DNA of 44,141 nucleotides, taken from NCBI GenBank assembly GCA_023267535.1, contig JAHFNC010000002.1:183426-227566 (forward strand). Reading direction: 5' to 3'. Within the stretch, counting starts at the first letter, position 1; every line of letters begins with the position of its first letter. The position numbers and the translations under genes were made by a program. The DNA comes from a bacterium. Lineage in GTDB: Bacteria; Patescibacteriota; Minisyncoccia; Phycocordibacterales; UBA5272. The notes beneath the pieces are model-generated. The model searched no databases and was not told the origin of the DNA. It saw only the letters and a program-made list of their open reading frames with translations. Positions 14,853-22,070 of the stretch are shown piece by piece.

Positions 14853-15476
14853 ATGAACAATTCATTTGGATTTTCTCAAAAAGAACTTACCATATTTAAA
14901 AAATTAAATACGCCAATTAAAATACAAGATTTTTTGGACTCAATTCCTTTTAATCACGAAAAGAAGGGTGAGACTTGTATGTCACCCAGAAAGGTTTTGC
15001 GTGAAAAAACAGCACATTGTATGGAGGGGGCGATGCTTGCTTACACAGCGCTAACTTTAAATAAAGAAGAAACTTATATTGTGAGTTTAAAAGTAAATGA
15101 TGACAGAGATTATGACCACATTGTCACTTTGTATAAAAGAAATGGATATTGGGGAGCGATTAGTAAAACCAATCACGCTGTCCTTTCTTTTCGTGATCCG
15201 ATTTATAAAACAATCAGAGAATTGGTTTTGTCATATTTTAATGAATATTTTTTAGTAAGTAACGGCAAGAAAACTTTAGTCGGTTATTCAGATAAAATAA
15301 ATCTTAAAAAATTTGGCACAAAATGGATGACTGAAGAAAAAGATTTGTTTGATATTTCAGGAAAAGTTTTCAAAATGAAACATAAGCCAATAGTTCCAAA
15401 AGATAATAGAAAATTTATTAGACCAGCCACCAAACTGGAATGCCAAGCCGCCAGTATTGAGAGGTGGAAGAAATAA
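14853..15476 (+). CDS. Hypothetical protein, transglutaminase-like Cys/His arrangement
   Basis: REKTAHCMEGAMLAYTAL ... DYDHIVTLYKRNGYWGAISKTNH. Confidence 0.6.
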   Translation: MNNSFGFSQKELTIFKKLNTPIKIQDFLDSIPFNHEKKGETCMSPRKVLREKTAHCMEGAMLAYTALTLNKEETYIVSLKVNDDRDYDHIVTLYKRNGYWGAISKTNHAVLSFRDPIYKTIRELVLSYFNEYFLVSNGKKTLVGYSDKINLKKFGTKWMTEEKDLFDISGKVFKMKHKPIVPKDNRKFIRPATKLECQAASIERWKK

Positions 15477-15510
15477 TGTCATACAGAAATTTTTTGCTAT
15501 AATTCCAAAT

Positions 15511-16095
15511 ATGCAAGATATTGAAATTGAAATTCAAACTAGAATTCAGAAAAGCGAAACACTCAAAAAGTTTTTAGAAGAGAAGGCTACTTTCATTTCG
15601 GAAAATCAACAAATTGATGAATATTTTACTCCGGCACACAAGGATTTTGTTTCAATAAAACCTATTGAGGAATGGTTTCGTATTCGTGAAGAAAAAGGAC
15701 TGTATACCATCAATTACAAAAAGTGGCATTATGAAAATGGTATCGGAACATATGCTGATGAATACGAGACTGAAATTGGAGACAAGGATACAGCAAGAAA
15801 AATATTTATTGCTTTAGATTTAAAGTTACTTATTACCGTTAATAAAACAAGAAAGAAGTTTATGTATAAAGATTACGAAATTGCTTTTGATAACGTTGTT
15901 GGTTTAGGAAATTTTGTTGAGATCGAATATAAAGGTAAAGATTCAGTTGACCCAAAAACTACAACAAACGAAATGGTTGATTTTCTAAAAAGCCAAGATT
16001 GTGGAGATATTGAGTTAAATAATGGAGGTTATCCGATGTTATTACTCTTTCCAGAAGATGCTCATTATATAAAGGTCGCACAGTCGTCGTGTTAA
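15511..16095 (+). CDS. CYTH-domain protein (CyaB/thiamine-triphosphatase-like)
   Basis: MQDIEIEIQTRI opening, alternating charged strands, DNVVGLGNFVEIEYKG. Confidence 0.72.
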   Translation: MQDIEIEIQTRIQKSETLKKFLEEKATFISENQQIDEYFTPAHKDFVSIKPIEEWFRIREEKGLYTINYKKWHYENGIGTYADEYETEIGDKDTARKIFIALDLKLLITVNKTRKKFMYKDYEIAFDNVVGLGNFVEIEYKGKDSVDPKTTTNEMVDFLKSQDCGDIELNNGGYPMLLLFPEDAHYIKVAQSSC

Positions 16096-16107
16096 ACTAA
16101 AATAATT

Positions 16108-17757
16108 ATGTCCACAGAAAATATTGTAGCTGAATTACAAAAAATATTAAAAGGTGATGTTTCCGTAAGTGATGTTGATAGAGAGACTTACGCCAGAGAT
16201 ACGAGTTTGTTTTATGTTAAGCCAGAGATTGTTGTCTTTCCAAAAGATAAAGAAGATTTACAAGAACTAGTCAAATTCGTTTCTAAAAAGAAAGATGAGG
16301 GAAAAAATATTTCCATAACCGCAAGATCAGCTGGTTCTGATATGACTGGTGGCCCGCTTACTCAATCAATCGTGGTTGTATTTACAAAGTATATGAATCA
16401 TATGCTTGAGATAAATAAAGACTTCGCTACCGCTGAGCCTGGGATGTATTATCGTGATTTTGAGAAAGAAACACTAAAATTTGGTTGGATAATGCCGTCG
16501 TACCCAGCATCTCGTGAGATTTGTGCAATAGGTGGAATAGTTTCAAATAATTCAGGGGGCGAAAAAACTCTCTCTTATGGAAAGACTGAAAGATATGTCA
16601 AAGCCCTTGATGTTGTTTTTGCTAATGGCGAAAGAGATACAATCAAAGAATTAAATAAACAAGAACTAGAAGAGAAGATGAAAGAAAATACCGAAAGCGG
16701 AAGAATACACAGAGAAATTTTCAATCTCATTTCAAACAATGAAGAATTAATTAGAAACGCTAAGCCGACAGTTTCAAAAAACTCATCGGGATATTACATT
16801 TGGAATGTTTACGACAAAGAAAAAGGAACATTTGATTTAAATAAAATGATTGTCGGAAGTCAGGGGACACTTTGTATGGTTACTTCTGCAAAGCTTGTTG
16901 GTATGGCTCCAAAGAAATATTCAAAAATGGTTGTCGTCTTTTTAAAAGATTTATCAAGACTTGGAGAAATCATTGTAAAATTTTTGGAACACAAGCCAGA
17001 ATCTTTTGAATCTTACGATGATCACACCTTCAACATCGCTCTAAAGTTTTTGCCTTCAATTATGAAGAAGATGGGAGGAAATTTTTTCACACTCGGATTT
17101 CAATTTATTCCGGAGGTTCTTATGGTGATAAGAGGTGGAGTTCCAAAATTAATTATTATGGCTGAGTTTACTGGAGACAATCAAGAAGAAGTAGACGGTA
17201 ATGCCAAAAAGGCGTTTGAAGATATAAAATCTTTCGGTTATCAAACAGAGTTGTTGAAGGATGAACAAGCGGCCAAGAAGTATTGGACATTTAGACGAGA
17301 GAGTTTTAATTTACTTCGCACTAAATTGAAAGGTTATAGAACCGCACCATCAATTGACGATATTATTGTTCACCCAGCCGATTTACCAAAATTTATTCCT
17401 GATTTGGAAAATATTTTCAAAAAATATGATTTGATTTATTCAGTGGCTGGTCATATTGGAGATGCTAATTTTCACATTGTTCCACTAGTTGATATGAAAA
17501 AGGAAGGAATGGATAAAATTATTCACAATTTGATGGATGAGATTTATGATTTAATCCTTAAATATAAAGGCTCTTTTTCGGCAGAGCACAATGATGGCAT
17601 CACTCGTACCGCTTATTTGCCAAAGATGTTTGGAGAAGAAGTAAACAATATTTTTAAAGATATTAAAAATATTTTTGATCCAAAAGATATCTTTAACCCA
17701 CATAAAAAAGTAAACGGCAATCCTAACGATTTCTTCAAATACATAGATAGGGCTTAA
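16108..17757 (+). CDS. FAD-linked oxidase (GlcD / D-lactate dehydrogenase-like)
   Basis: ARSAGSDMTGGPL FAD-binding motif, GIVSNNSGGEKTLSYGKTERYVKALDVVFANG, C-terminal FDPKDIFNPHKK. Confidence 0.88.
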   Translation: MSTENIVAELQKILKGDVSVSDVDRETYARDTSLFYVKPEIVVFPKDKEDLQELVKFVSKKKDEGKNISITARSAGSDMTGGPLTQSIVVVFTKYMNHMLEINKDFATAEPGMYYRDFEKETLKFGWIMPSYPASREICAIGGIVSNNSGGEKTLSYGKTERYVKALDVVFANGERDTIKELNKQELEEKMKENTESGRIHREIFNLISNNEELIRNAKPTVSKNSSGYYIWNVYDKEKGTFDLNKMIVGSQGTLCMVTSAKLVGMAPKKYSKMVVVFLKDLSRLGEIIVKFLEHKPESFESYDDHTFNIALKFLPSIMKKMGGNFFTLGFQFIPEVLMVIRGGVPKLIIMAEFTGDNQEEVDGNAKKAFEDIKSFGYQTELLKDEQAAKKYWTFRRESFNLLRTKLKGYRTAPSIDDIIVHPADLPKFIPDLENIFKKYDLIYSVAGHIGDANFHIVPLVDMKKEGMDKIIHNLMDEIYDLILKYKGSFSAEHNDGITRTAYLPKMFGEEVNNIFKDIKNIFDPKDIFNPHKKVNGNPNDFFKYIDRA

Positions 17758-17781
17758 TTTTTTTGGTATAATACTGGAATA

Positions 17782-19053
17782 ATGAGTGTATCTAAGATAA
17801 TTAATTTTGACGAAATTGCCAGAAGTAAAGAAAGGGCAGATATGCTTGAAATAGTAGATGCCGGACTTTTATCTATTGATACCAAGAGAACTATAAAAGA
17901 AAAATTATTGTTTGATGGAGACAAAATTGAGATAAATGGAAAAGTTTTTTCTGTAAAAGATTATGAAAAAATTGTGGTCTTTGCTATCGGCAAGGCCTCG
18001 TCATCTGCTGTCCGTATTCTTGAAGAAATTTTTGGTGATTTAATAACATATGGCATTGGTATTGATAAAGTTGATTATAAGGGGAAGAAGATAGAAGTTT
18101 TTAAGGGCGCTCACCCAATTCCAAAACAAGAAAATGTAGAAATATCTGAAAAGATTTTTGAGACGGCAAATAATTTAACAGAAAAAGATTTAGCAATAGT
18201 CGTTGTCTCAGGCGGAGGCTCATCACTTTTATGTTATCCGAAAGAGGAAAGAGACCAAGGAGAGATTTTGTATGAGGCATTTTTACCGACAGGAGGAACT
18301 GTCGTGGAACTAAACACAATTAGAAAACACATTTCAGAAATAAAAGGAGGGGGATTAGCCAAAGCTCTTTATCCAGCGACTGTAATTACTTTGGTTATGT
18401 GTGATGTTCCAGGAAATCATTATGAAATTGTAGCTTCAGGTCCAACTTATAAAGATAATTCAAGCATTGATGATGCTAAAAAAGTTTTGGAAAAATATAA
18501 TTTAAATATTAATTTATCATTTAATGAAACTCCGAAAGAAGATATTTATTTTGAAAAAGTTTTTAACTTTCCAATTATTTCTAACATTATTGCTTTACAG
18601 GATATGAAGAATAAAGCTGAATCTTTGGGTTATAAAACAAAAATATTAGGTAGTGATATTTACGACAATACTGAGATTGTTTTAGATAAAATGTTCGCCA
18701 TTGATGAAAAAAATCTTGTGATATTAGGAGGAGGAGAGCCAGCTATTAACATAACTAAAAAAGGTGGAACAGGTGGAAGAAATGAACTGATGGCGATGTC
18801 AGCTATTGATAGAATTAAAGAGGGAGATGTTTTTGCCTCGGTGGCATCAGACGGTATTGATAATAAGTCTGATTTTGCTGGTGGAATTGTGGATTATTCT
18901 ACAAAAAATTTATTTGCCAATCGACAAGCAGAAATGGAAGAGGCTAAATTAGCCTTTGATGCTGAGAAAATATTATCCGACTCAAAAGATTTAATTAAGA
19001 CTGGTTCTACTGGTTCCAATGTTTCAGATTTATTTTTACTTTTAAGAAAATAA
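17782..19053 (+). CDS. Glycerate 2-kinase (GckA/MOFRL family)
   Basis: FAIGKASSSAVRILEE, VVVSGGGSSLLCYP, LNTIRKHISEIKGGGLAKALYPA, ASDGIDNKSDFAGGIVD. Confidence 0.88.
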   Translation: MSVSKIINFDEIARSKERADMLEIVDAGLLSIDTKRTIKEKLLFDGDKIEINGKVFSVKDYEKIVVFAIGKASSSAVRILEEIFGDLITYGIGIDKVDYKGKKIEVFKGAHPIPKQENVEISEKIFETANNLTEKDLAIVVVSGGGSSLLCYPKEERDQGEILYEAFLPTGGTVVELNTIRKHISEIKGGGLAKALYPATVITLVMCDVPGNHYEIVASGPTYKDNSSIDDAKKVLEKYNLNINLSFNETPKEDIYFEKVFNFPIISNIIALQDMKNKAESLGYKTKILGSDIYDNTEIVLDKMFAIDEKNLVILGGGEPAINITKKGGTGGRNELMAMSAIDRIKEGDVFASVASDGIDNKSDFAGGIVDYSTKNLFANRQAEMEEAKLAFDAEKILSDSKDLIKTGSTGSNVSDLFLLLRK

Positions 19054-19054
19054 T

Positions 19055-20272
19055 ATGGCAAAAGAAATAACAAATGTATACGGCAAAGAAATTCTAGACT
19101 CAAGAGGAAAAAAGGCTCTTGAAGTTTTTGTTTGCTCTTACGAACAAGTTGCATCTTTTCAAGTTCCAAGTGGAGCAAGCACAGGATCTTCTGAGGCGTT
19201 AGAATTAAGAGATGCAGATGGTGGAATGCAAAAAGCAATTTCTATTATTGAAAGTATTATTAAGCCAAGATTACTCGGAATGGATGTCACATCTCAGATA
19301 GAAATAGATAAACTATTATTATTACTTGATAGCACCGAACAAAAAACAAATTTAGGTGGGAACACAATGATTGGAGTAAGTGTTGCTTGTGCCAAATTGG
19401 GTGCAATCTTATCTAATCTGAAAACTTTTGAATATTTGAGAACATTAAAAGATATCAAACCAGATAGAGCACAACCACTTCTCTTTGTTAATTTAATAAA
19501 TGGTGGCAAACACGCTGGTCCAAATTCAAAACTAGCTTTTCAGGAGTATCACATTATTCCTTTTGTTGATTCTGTAAAAGAAGCTTTAGAAATTACTGAA
19601 AAGGTTGCCGATGTTGTGGAGAGATTACTTTCAGAAAAAGGAATGTTACTTGGTAAGGGTGATGAAGGTGGGTTTGTTGTTCCGTTTTCTGATGTGCTTT
19701 TACCTTTTCATATTTTGAAAGAAGCTTGTGATATTGCTGGCGTATCAAATCAAGTTCGTCTTTCGGTGGATGTGGCGGCCAGCTCATTTTATGATTCGGA
19801 AAAGAAAGAATATAAAGTTGGAGAAGAAATGCTTTCAAAAGAACAAATGTTTGATAAGTATGGCGAAATGATAATTAGATTTGATGTTACTTCCATAGAA
19901 GACCCGTTTAATGAGGATGATTTGGTATCATTTGCAGAATTACAAAAGCAGCACAAAGATGTAAATATTGTGGGAGATGATTTGACTGTGACCAATAAAA
20001 ATAAAATCTTAAAAGCGGTAGAAAACGAAAGTATAAAAAGTGTGATTATAAAACCAAATCAAATCGGAACTCTCACTGAAACCTTAGAAGCAATGAAAGT
20101 TGCTAAAGAAAATGGAATTAATTTAATAGTTAGTCACAGGAGTGGAGAGACTATGGATGATTTTATTGCTGATTTGGCAGTAGCTTTTGGAGTTTATGGT
20201 ATGAAGCTTGGCTCTCCAAGAGCTAAAGAAAGAAAAGTTAAATATGATAGACTAGTCAGTATATTATCTTAA
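19055..20272 (+). CDS. eno: Enolase, divergent
   Basis: PSGASTGSSEALELRD, KGDEGGF, SVDVAASSFYD, VGDDLTVTN, KPNQIGTLTETLEA, SHRSGETMDDFIADLAVA. Confidence 0.92.
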   Translation: MAKEITNVYGKEILDSRGKKALEVFVCSYEQVASFQVPSGASTGSSEALELRDADGGMQKAISIIESIIKPRLLGMDVTSQIEIDKLLLLLDSTEQKTNLGGNTMIGVSVACAKLGAILSNLKTFEYLRTLKDIKPDRAQPLLFVNLINGGKHAGPNSKLAFQEYHIIPFVDSVKEALEITEKVADVVERLLSEKGMLLGKGDEGGFVVPFSDVLLPFHILKEACDIAGVSNQVRLSVDVAASSFYDSEKKEYKVGEEMLSKEQMFDKYGEMIIRFDVTSIEDPFNEDDLVSFAELQKQHKDVNIVGDDLTVTNKNKILKAVENESIKSVIIKPNQIGTLTETLEAMKVAKENGINLIVSHRSGETMDDFIADLAVAFGVYGMKLGSPRAKERKVKYDRLVSILS

Positions 20273-20275
20273 TTT

Positions 20276-21049
20276 ATGTCATCAAAAACTATAATCATTG
20301 CCACCTTAGGCCCTTCAAGTCGTAGTGCTGAAACTTTAAAGTCTATGATTGAGTCTGGTATGGATATGGCAAGACTTAATTTTTCTTGGGGAACTTATGA
20401 AGAACATCACAACTTCATAGAAAACATTAGAAGCGTGGCTACATCACTTTTAAAATCAGTTCCTATAATAATTGATTTGTCTGGCCCAAGAGTAAAAGAA
20501 GATGATGGTCATCATATAGATGCAAACAGCATAAAAACAATCACCGAGAAAGATTTGAGTGATATTGATTTTGGTATCAAAGAAAATGTGGAATATTTTG
20601 CAATGTCTTATGTAAAAAGCGCGTCTGATATTTTGGAGTTAAAAAATATAATTAAAGAAAAAGGAGGCAATCAGAAAGTGATAGCTAAAATTGAAACCAA
20701 AGAAGCCGTCAGTTCTCTAGAAGAAATAATAAAAAATTCTGATATGGTTATGGTAGCAAGAGGAGACTTAGGAAATGAATTTCCGCTTGAAGAAATTCCA
20801 TTTGTTGAAAAGAAAATTATAAAGACGGCAAATGATTTAAATGTGCCGGTAATTGTCGCTACTCAGATGCTTTTGTCTATGATTAAAAACAAAGAGCCAA
20901 CAAGAGCCGAAGTCACTGACGAAGTGTTTGCGATTTTAGAAGGGGCGCAAGGTGTGATGCTTTCCGAAGAAACTGCCACCGGAGAAAATCCAGTGGAAGC
21001 GGTTTCCTTTATGGAAAGGATTGCAAATAACACCGAGAAAAATATATAG
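20276..21049 (+). CDS. pyk: Pyruvate kinase, A-domain only
   Basis: ATLGPSSRSAETLKSMIESGMDMARLNFSWG, IAKIETKEAV, VMVARGDLGNEFPLEEIP, VIVATQMLLSM, EGAQGVMLSEETATGENPVEAV; 257 aa. Confidence 0.85.
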   Translation: MSSKTIIIATLGPSSRSAETLKSMIESGMDMARLNFSWGTYEEHHNFIENIRSVATSLLKSVPIIIDLSGPRVKEDDGHHIDANSIKTITEKDLSDIDFGIKENVEYFAMSYVKSASDILELKNIIKEKGGNQKVIAKIETKEAVSSLEEIIKNSDMVMVARGDLGNEFPLEEIPFVEKKIIKTANDLNVPVIVATQMLLSMIKNKEPTRAEVTDEVFAILEGAQGVMLSEETATGENPVEAVSFMERIANNTEKNI

Positions 21050-21064
21050 AAAAATATATAAATT

Positions 21065-22036
21065 ATGAAAAAAAATATTTACATCACAAGAACAATACCA
21101 GAAGTTGGCATTAATCTTTTGAAAGAAAAAGGTTACAAAGTAACTGTTTCTAAAAAAAATAAAGTTCCAACTAAAGAAGAATTGATAAATGCTCTTTCAA
21201 AAAAGAAATACGACGCTGTTGTTTCTTTGCTCACCGATCACATAAATGTTGATGTGCTTAATGTCTGTCCTAATGTAAAAATAATTGCCAATTACGCTGT
21301 TGGTTTTAATAATATTGATGTGGAAGAAGCAGAGAAAAGAGGAATCGTTGTTACTAATACCGCAGGCACTTCATCACAAGCGGTTGCAGAACATACCGTA
21401 GCTTTAATGTTTGCCGTTACCACAAGACTTGTTGAAGGGGATAGATTTGTTAGGAAAGGAAAGTTTAAGGGCTGGGATCCAAACTTATTAATGGGATTAG
21501 ATATTTCAAAAAAGACTATTGGAGTGATTGGACTCGGTGCTATTGGCAAAAAAGTTGGTCACATTCTTAAAAAAGGATTTGATTGTAAAATTATTTATAA
21601 CGACATTAAAAGAGACGACAGTTTTGAAAATGATTGTGGAGGCGAATATATGAGTATTGATGAAGTTTTGAAAAATGCCGACATTGTCACACTTCATGTG
21701 CCACTTCTTCCAAGCACCAAACATTTAATTAACAAAGAAAAAATTTCTTTAATGAAAAGGACGGCGATTATAATAAACACTTCTCGCGGGCCAGTGGTGG
21801 AAGAAGAGGCGATAGTGGAAGCTTTAAAAGAAAAAAGAATTTACGGAGCCGGTCTTGATGTTTTTGAATTTGAACCGCATATTAGTGATGAGTTTAAGAA
21901 ATTAGACAATATTGTGATGACCCCACATATCGCATCTTCAAGAGCAAGCGCAAGAGAAGAAATGGCAACGCTTGTCGCAAAAAATATAATAGATGTATTA
22001 GAAGGAGGAAAGGGAATCACACCTGTTAAGTTATAA
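21065..22036 (+). CDS. 2-hydroxyacid dehydrogenase (glyoxylate/hydroxypyruvate reductase-like)
   Basis: ANYAVGFNNIDVEEAEKRGIVVTNT, GVIGLGAIGKKVG, INTSRGPVVEEEAIVEAL, MTPHIASS. Confidence 0.9.
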   Translation: MKKNIYITRTIPEVGINLLKEKGYKVTVSKKNKVPTKEELINALSKKKYDAVVSLLTDHINVDVLNVCPNVKIIANYAVGFNNIDVEEAEKRGIVVTNTAGTSSQAVAEHTVALMFAVTTRLVEGDRFVRKGKFKGWDPNLLMGLDISKKTIGVIGLGAIGKKVGHILKKGFDCKIIYNDIKRDDSFENDCGGEYMSIDEVLKNADIVTLHVPLLPSTKHLINKEKISLMKRTAIIINTSRGPVVEEEAIVEALKEKRIYGAGLDVFEFEPHISDEFKKLDNIVMTPHIASSRASAREEMATLVAKNIIDVLEGGKGITPVKL

Positions 22037-22040
22037 AAAG

Positions 22041-22070
22041 AAAAACCCGTCTGATTTAGACGGGAATTTT
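22041..22070 (+). terminator. Intrinsic terminator at end of glycerate operon
   Basis: CCCGTCT-GATTT-AGACGGG then aatttt. Confidence 0.65.

What the first reader, a model, noticed from the sequence alone, without database searches (positions are those of the whole stretch)
16108..22036. Compact five-gene operon linking glyoxylate/hydroxypyruvate and glycerate to pyruvate
FAD-linked oxidase, glycerate 2-kinase, enolase, pyruvate kinase and hydroxypyruvate/glyoxylate reductase are consecutive with gaps of 24, 1, 3 and 15 nt, and a terminator follows. Together they could run hydroxypyruvate to D-glycerate to 2-phosphoglycerate to PEP to pyruvate, with the oxidase supplying or consuming a 2-hydroxyacid. 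Because the kinase makes 2-PG directly, phosphoglycerate mutase is bypassed. Net ATP is about zero (one spent, one gained), so redox balancing or carbon salvage seems more likely than energy yield.
Basis: partly seen in the sequence, partly recalled or inferred. Interest (0 to 1): 0.62.

Follow-up and report, generated by a model that had tools for sequence, protein, structure and literature searches.

The report
Lidless pyruvate kinase in glycolysis operon
A tiny uncultured bacterium carries the end of glycolysis as one operon, with a pyruvate kinase stripped to its bare barrel and a glycerate kinase in place of the missing phosphoglycerate mutase, which could explain how such bacteria get past a step they seemed to lack.

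Summary
The five genes, gaps and terminator are real. The genome is 652 kb, in the same genus as a Ca. Nomurabacteria MAG, and holds only one enolase and one pyruvate kinase (PK), both in this operon.

Two things were missed. [quoted passage not shown] It belongs to one clade (100/99 support) found in 36 of 397 genomes of the order. AlphaFold gives a complete barrel (pLDDT 95.6).

Second, glycerate 2-kinase (GK2) and phosphoglycerate mutase (PGM) almost exclude each other. Among 60 enolase-bearing genomes, 17 of 19 with GK2 lack PGM, and all 41 without GK2 have a PGM (one of them a weak PGM-like protein). The 20 genomes without enolase have neither. So GK2 supplies enolase where PGM is missing, a gap earlier authors left open.

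The hydroxypyruvate/glyoxylate reading is weak. The reductase also sits beside PGM-type operons and is sometimes swapped for an LdhA-type enzyme, so pyruvate to D-lactate is more likely. The FAD oxidase is not part of the conserved core.

The glycerate source is unproven; my best guess is dephosphorylated 3-phosphoglycerate. No activity has been tested.

The parts
15457..16095 (+). CYTH-domain protein ending 12 nt upstream of the FAD oxidase; possibly the same transcript, not conserved with the core
   Evidence: Pfam CYTH E=2e-20; ORF
16108..17757 (+). FAD-linked 2-hydroxyacid dehydrogenase/oxidase of the GlcD/YdiJ/LctD kind, 549 aa; accessory, beside the core only in the window's genus
   Evidence: Pfam FAD_binding_4 and FAD-oxidase_C; no NCBIfam equivalog cut-off reached; nearest solved structure LctD 7qh2; neighbourhoods
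17782..19053 (+). Class II (MOFRL) D-glycerate 2-kinase, predicted to make 2-phosphoglycerate; supplies enolase where PGM is missing
   Evidence: DUF4147 8e-57, MOFRL 3e-21; nearest solved 2b8n T. maritima glycerate kinase; K71 and R333 invariant; distribution
19055..20272 (+). Enolase, 405 aa, the only one in the genome
   Evidence: TIGR01060 376.7 bits, cut-off 300; single copy; catalytic residues
20276..21049 (+). Minimal pyruvate kinase, 257 aa: A-domain barrel only, no B-domain lid, no C domain; the only PK in the genome
20489..20521 (+). Codons for residues 72-82: R72 (column of rabbit E117) and the short hairpin with H79 that replaces the B domain; R72 and H79 invariant in 36 sequences
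   Evidence: A3 invariant columns; strands 72-75 and 78-81
21065..22036 (+). NAD-dependent 2-hydroxyacid dehydrogenase of the glyoxylate-reductase subfamily; best read as the pyruvate to D-lactate step that reoxidises NADH
   Evidence: slot shared with LdhA-type enzymes; R241 and H288 invariant
22046..22064 (+). Bidirectional terminator-like hairpin closing the operon

Best explanation
This is the terminal-glycolysis and D-lactate module of a fermentative Patescibacterium. GK2 feeds enolase with 2-phosphoglycerate in place of the missing phosphoglycerate mutase. Enolase makes PEP, a lidless single-domain pyruvate kinase makes pyruvate and ATP, and the 2-hydroxyacid dehydrogenase reduces pyruvate to D-lactate, returning NAD+ to GAPDH. 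SHOWN by sequence: gene content and order, single-copy Eno and PK, absence of known PGMs, loss of the B and C domains, one clade of minimal PKs, and the near-exclusive distribution of GK2 and PGM. INFERRED: that the minimal PK is active, that it is K+-independent (Arg at the position where Lys gives K+ independence), that the hairpin with H79 partly stands in for the lid, and that the dehydrogenase acts on pyruvate. MOST UNCERTAIN: that the glycerate comes from PGK's 3-PG through an unidentified phosphatase (about 0.45); imported or salvaged glycerate is the main alternative.
For: The only PK in the genome is 257 aa with split PF00224 matches around a missing B domain. Contiguous matches at 328-442 bits in 36 of 397 order genomes, next best 254 bits; the same gap in the class, 365-418 against 251 bits or less. 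One clade, 100/99. AF2 pLDDT 95.6, pTM 0.92, hairpin in place of the B domain; TM 0.95 to P. aeruginosa PykA. R33, N35, K138, E140, D164 and T196 invariant in 36 of 36. Operons: GK2-Eno-PK or PGM-PK-Eno with a dehydrogenase. Fusions that tie the steps together: PGM::PK in both orders, GK2::Eno and LdhA::PGM. Among enolase-bearing genomes GK2 against PGM has Fisher p=7.6e-12. All 20 enolase-less genomes lack both GK2 and a clear PGM, including nine that have a PK. LdhA-type enzyme in the dehydrogenase slot at six loci. GAPDH, PGK and TPI present; no match to E. coli PFOR, PDH, PFL, AdhE, Mdh, AckA, Pta or ATP synthase. No aldehyde dehydrogenase. All characterised class II glycerate kinases make 2-PG (PMC2063504).
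Against: No 3-PG phosphatase was identified and this route costs one ATP per triose. GK2-type and PGM-type operons differ in gene order and largely in enolase subtype, so they may be cassettes inherited as blocks, and the exclusion is then not many independent events (the tree-aware pair test had only 2 usable pairs). Two genomes have both GK2 and PGM (G643, G030). The dehydrogenase is closest to Thermococcales glyoxylate reductases, so pyruvate is not its obvious substrate. B-domain closure is described as organising the nucleotide site in known PKs (PMC4374775), so a lidless PK could be slow. Most genomes searched are multi-contig drafts.
Confidence: 0.62

Rival explanations
1. One reading: a salvage operon taking hydroxypyruvate/glyoxylate (reductase) through D-glycerate, GK2, enolase and PK to pyruvate, with the FAD oxidase handling a 2-hydroxyacid.
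For: The reductase is closest to Thermococcales glyoxylate reductases. GK2, Eno and PK are adjacent. Pseudomonas has a glyoxylate cluster with GK2 and PK (PMC12694930).
Against: The same reductase subfamily accompanies PGM-type operons without GK2 and is replaced by LdhA-type enzymes elsewhere, including in GK2 operons G726 and G596. No Gcl, Hyi, GlxR or serine-glyoxylate aminotransferase was recognised (by eye). The oxidase is not conserved.
Confidence: 0.12
2. Stand-alone D-glycerate fermentation: glycerate is imported from the host or environment and turned into D-lactate by GK2, Eno, PK and dehydrogenase; 3-PG from PGK goes elsewhere.
For: GK2 always travels with enolase and usually with a D-2-hydroxyacid dehydrogenase, also where PK is replaced by PpsA.
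Against: PGK is present in all 19 GK2 genomes, and in G000 no consumer of 3-PG was found: no PGM, no SerA besides the reductase, no GlyA. It would not explain why GK2 and PGM exclude each other. No glycerate importer was identified.
Confidence: 0.2
3. The short PK is a decayed or repurposed, inactive paralogue and PEP is handled otherwise.
For: It has lost two of three domains. Several genomes carry a full-length PK as well (for example G365, G643, G705, G766).
Against: Invariant catalytic residues in 36 sequences, a clade with long-lasting conservation, a confident barrel model, fusion to PGM in both orders, and it is the sole PK in G000.
Confidence: 0.06

Closest known systems
Canonical pyruvate kinase (PykF/PykA, PF00224 + PF02887)
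   Same: A-domain barrel with all barrel catalytic residues; 41-44% identity and TM 0.93-0.95 over the barrel in the closest solved structures
   Different: No B-domain lid, no C domain; short hairpin with invariant His79; Arg at the K+-determining position 117; separate clade
Pseudomonas aeruginosa gcl-hyi-glxR-glxK-pykF cluster (PMC12694930)
   Same: MOFRL-type glycerate kinase adjacent to a pyruvate kinase, glycerate to pyruvate logic
   Different: No Gcl, Hyi or GlxR recognised here; enolase and a D-2-hydroxyacid dehydrogenase are in the operon; PK is lidless; it is the only Eno and PK of the genome
Non-phosphorylative Entner-Doudoroff lower branch (Thermoproteus tenax, PMC2063504)
   Same: Class II glycerate kinase making 2-PG, then Eno and PK; nearest NCBIfam model is the Thermoproteota glycerate 2-kinase
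   Different: No aldehyde dehydrogenase in 17 of 19 GK2 genomes and only weak partial matches in the other two; phosphorylating GAPDH and PGK present
Zambryskibacteraceae cluster lactate permease-eno-dPGM-D-LDH-PpsA-GK2 (PMC10469934)
   Same: Same Patescibacterial association of GK2, Eno and D-LDH
   Different: That cluster has both dPGM and GK2, and PpsA instead of the minimal PK; the exclusion pattern and the lidless PK are not in the passages read

Membership tests
Pyruvate kinase (enzyme family) | PK A-domain barrel (PF00224) with catalytic R, N, K, E, D, T | tested here: met
   258 bits, cut-off 30; residues invariant in 36 sequences
Pyruvate kinase (canonical three-domain architecture) | B-domain lid inserted in the barrel | tested here: not met
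   Profile positions of the B domain unmatched; about 80-95 alignment columns missing; hairpin only in the model
Pyruvate kinase (canonical three-domain architecture) | C-terminal allosteric domain (PF02887) | tested here: not met
   No PK_C match; protein ends at residue 257
Pyruvate kinase (enzyme family) | PEP + ADP to pyruvate + ATP | not testable with these tools
   needs an enzyme assay
Class II (MOFRL) glycerate kinase | DUF4147 plus MOFRL domains with the conserved Lys and Arg | tested here: met
   the NCBIfam equivalog cut-offs are not reached (202 against 550 bits)
Class II (MOFRL) glycerate kinase | Product 2-PG rather than 3-PG | not testable with these tools
   true for all characterised class II enzymes (PMC2063504)
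Enolase | TIGR01060 equivalog score and catalytic residues | tested here: met
   376.7 bits against 300; residues
Glyoxylate/hydroxypyruvate reductase (PRK13243) | Equivalog score of NCBIfam NF009714 | tested here: not met
   343.6 bits against a cut-off of 455; nearest solved relatives are nonetheless glyoxylate reductases
Glyoxylate/hydroxypyruvate reductase (PRK13243) | Gene tied to glycerate metabolism | tested here: not met
   same subfamily beside PGM-type operons lacking GK2
Glycolate oxidase GlcD / YdiJ | Equivalog score | tested here: not met
   190 against 568 and 259 against 1350 bits; only the superfamily is certain
Glyoxylate (gcl) utilisation operon | Gcl, Hyi and GlxR present | tested here: inconclusive
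   not recognised when reading all 190-700 aa ORFs by eye; no profile search was made
Non-phosphorylative Entner-Doudoroff lower branch | Glyceraldehyde dehydrogenase (aldehyde dehydrogenase) | tested here: not met
   no PF00171 in G000; ferredoxin-dependent oxidoreductases not tested

The most novel reading that the evidence does not exclude
In PGM-less Patescibacteria the glycerate 2-kinase is itself the functional mutase: ADP/ATP held in the active site takes the phosphoryl group from O3 of 3-PG and returns it to O2 of the same glycerate, converting 3-PG to 2-PG without net ATP cost or a separate phosphatase. It would be a further, kinase-based class of phosphoglycerate mutase working with a lidless pyruvate kinase.
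Probability: 0.07. Interest if true: 0.88.

Novelty: new variant of a known kind. Interest (0 to 1): 0.62.

Why it matters
A survey of about 1000 CPR genomes found PGM missing from several shallow Parcubacteria clades and suggested divergent, undetected forms (PMC7304191). Here every enolase-bearing genome examined has either a PGM or a glycerate 2-kinase, rarely both, which gives a concrete and testable answer. The lidless pyruvate kinase is a natural experiment on what the B domain is for. B-domain movement is described as closing and organising the active site (PMC4374775), yet this clade has kept the barrel's catalytic residues without it.

Tried and rejected
Assembly error or frameshift in the short PK: rejected, since dozens of independent genomes have the same architecture. 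A hidden second PK or enolase: none. A hidden PGM: PF01676 none. PF00300 gives two hits in G000, one inside isoleucyl-tRNA synthetase and one 269-aa phosphatase without PGM motifs. Non-phosphorylative ED source of glycerate: no aldehyde dehydrogenase. Full-length-PK genomes with neither PGM nor GK2 looked like counter-examples until all proved to lack enolase. A phylogenetic sign test on the PK tree was underpowered. A first genome-contig scan with the window PK found nothing and a sub-alignment was too variable to search; a two-sequence alignment named a congener. Paper searches for a B-domain-less pyruvate kinase found none, but the library lacks most subscription journals.
Full report
OBSERVATION. 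Profile searches confirm the families. The window is the end of a 227,566-base contig in a 652 kb, 13-contig genome.

The PK ORF is only 257 aa. Its matches to PF00224 and to solved PKs fall into two stretches around a gap where the B domain (the active-site lid) should be, and the protein ends before the C domain. It is the only PK in the genome. A profile of such proteins separates cleanly from ordinary PKs. In 397 genomes of the order, 36 score 328-442 bits in one contiguous match, and the next best is 254 bits, split at the B domain. The same break appears in the class. In a tree of barrel columns only, the minimal PKs are one clade at 100/99 support. A protein of another class (G285) has lost the B domain but kept the C domain, and groups with full-length PKs, so a second independent loss is likely.

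STRUCTURE. AlphaFold2 from 36 homologues gives a complete barrel (pLDDT 95.6, pTM 0.92) with a short hairpin, strands 72-75 and 78-81, where the B domain would be. Foldseek finds PK barrels at TM 0.93-0.95. The barrel catalytic residues R33, N35, K138, E140, D164 and T196 are invariant in 36 sequences. Two more invariant residues mark the clade: R72, which aligns with rabbit position 117, and H79 in the hairpin. Lys at position 117 gives K+-independence (PMC4374775), so Arg there predicts a K+-independent enzyme; this is inference. H79 as a partial substitute for the lid is also inference, because I had no coordinates to measure.

NEIGHBOURHOODS. Around 37 minimal-PK loci the usual neighbours are enolase, a D-2-hydroxyacid dehydrogenase and a supplier of 2-PG, though not every locus shows all three. 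The supplier is GK2 (G000, G005, G007, G015, G036, G726, G748, G477, G479, G596), or dPGM (for example G537, G473, G584, G639, G698, G539), or iPGM (G663, G490). Several are fused: PGM::PK in G192, and PK::PGM in G424, G697 and G702. In related loci GK2 is fused to enolase (G001, 832 aa) and LdhA is fused to PGM (G006). Where PpsA sits in the cluster instead of PK, the order is GK2-PpsA-Eno-LdhA or GK2-PpsA-LdhA-Eno (G039, G059, G034, G045). GK2-type operons run GK2-Eno-PK, while PGM-type operons run PGM-PK-Eno with mostly a different enolase subtype, so these are not one operon with a simple swapped slot.

EXCLUSION OF GK2 AND PGM. Over 80 genomes I mapped iPGM/archaeal PGM, the histidine-phosphatase superfamily, GK2, PGK, dPGM and enolase. 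Among 60 enolase-bearing genomes, 17 of 19 with GK2 have no PGM (exceptions G643 and G030), and 40 of 41 without GK2 have one, Fisher p=7.6e-12. The remaining genome, G026, has a PGM-like protein with an FTGW motif, though with a weak score, which would make it 41 of 41. The 20 genomes without enolase have neither GK2 nor a clear PGM, and nine of these still have a PK. GK2 was seen only with enolase, 19 of 19. The other histidine phosphatases examined in GK2 genomes score at most about 35 bits against E. coli GpmA, where real long dPGMs score 293-344. G726, rated 100% complete, has no free histidine phosphatase and no PF01676, yet has PGK and LdhA-GK2-Eno-PK; G192 in the same genus has a PGM::PK fusion. 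Within-family contrasts (f1, f15, f39, f43, f46) all go the same way, with f213 (G643) the exception. These are few, and a tree-aware test on the PK tree had too few pairs, so the p-value should not be read as phylogenetically corrected.

THE DEHYDROGENASE. If the reductase made glycerate from hydroxypyruvate it should follow GK2. Instead, the same subfamily sits in dPGM- and iPGM-type operons, and at six loci an LdhA-type enzyme takes its place (LdhA 180-194 bits against 130-163 for the G000 type), including GK2 operons G726 and G596. Phmmer with E. coli enzymes found no other lactate dehydrogenase, PFOR, PDH, PFL, AdhE, malate dehydrogenase, acetate kinase, Pta or F-type ATP synthase subunits in G000. 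GAPDH, PGK, TPI and a split transketolase are present. The simplest role is pyruvate to D-lactate, closing the NADH loop. The sequence is nonetheless nearest to Thermococcales glyoxylate reductases, so substrate preference needs an assay.

WHERE THE GLYCERATE COMES FROM. All characterised class II glycerate kinases make 2-PG (PMC2063504). PGK is present in every GK2 genome and I found no other consumer of 3-PG in G000, so a phosphatase plus GK2 bypass of PGM is my first choice; it would net about one ATP per triose. The phosphatase is not identified. Aldehyde dehydrogenase is absent from G000 and from 17 of 19 GK2 genomes, which speaks against the archaeal non-phosphorylative route. Imported glycerate remains possible.

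RELATION TO KNOWN WORK. Jaffe et al. 2020 (PMC7304191) noted patchy PGM, enolase and PK in CPR and PGM missing from shallow Parcubacteria clades, perhaps as undetected divergent forms. A Zambryskibacteraceae cluster with GK2, dPGM, Eno, D-LDH and PpsA has been mentioned (PMC10469934). P. aeruginosa has a glyoxylate cluster with a TM1585-type glycerate kinase and PykF (PMC12694930). I found no description of a B-domain-less PK in the papers that could be searched.

VERDICT. The most interesting parts are the lidless PK clade and the near-exclusive GK2/PGM pattern. No biochemical activity has been shown.

Noticed in passing
L047:7094-10525 (G000:C6:27091-30525, - strand): Isoleucyl-tRNA synthetase (TIGR00392, 842 bits) has a histidine-phosphatase domain (PF00300) inserted in the catalytic domain at residues 506-654. 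A PF00300 match inside an ORF of about 1150-1250 aa recurs in most of the 80 Patescibacteria searched. Its role is unknown to me.
   Followed up: partly
L088:846-2096 (G285): A pyruvate kinase of another class lacks the B domain but keeps the C domain and groups with full-length PKs: apparently a second, independent loss of the lid.
   Followed up: partly
L074, L075, L076 (G001, G006, G027): PKs of about 340 aa that keep the B domain but lack the C domain, next to full-length and fully minimal forms in the same order.
   Followed up: no
G000:C10:26020-27967 (in L049): A divergently placed pair of a DUF2090 aldolase-like protein (PF09863) and a PfkB-type sugar kinase (by eye), beside split transketolase, ribulose-phosphate epimerase, RpiB and GAPDH genes: a possible sugar entry route in a genome where E. 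coli-type Pfk, FbaA and Pgi were not found.
   Followed up: partly
G000:C6:41657+ (in L048): A second FAD_binding_4-like oxidase of 528 aa, recognised by eye only.
   Followed up: no
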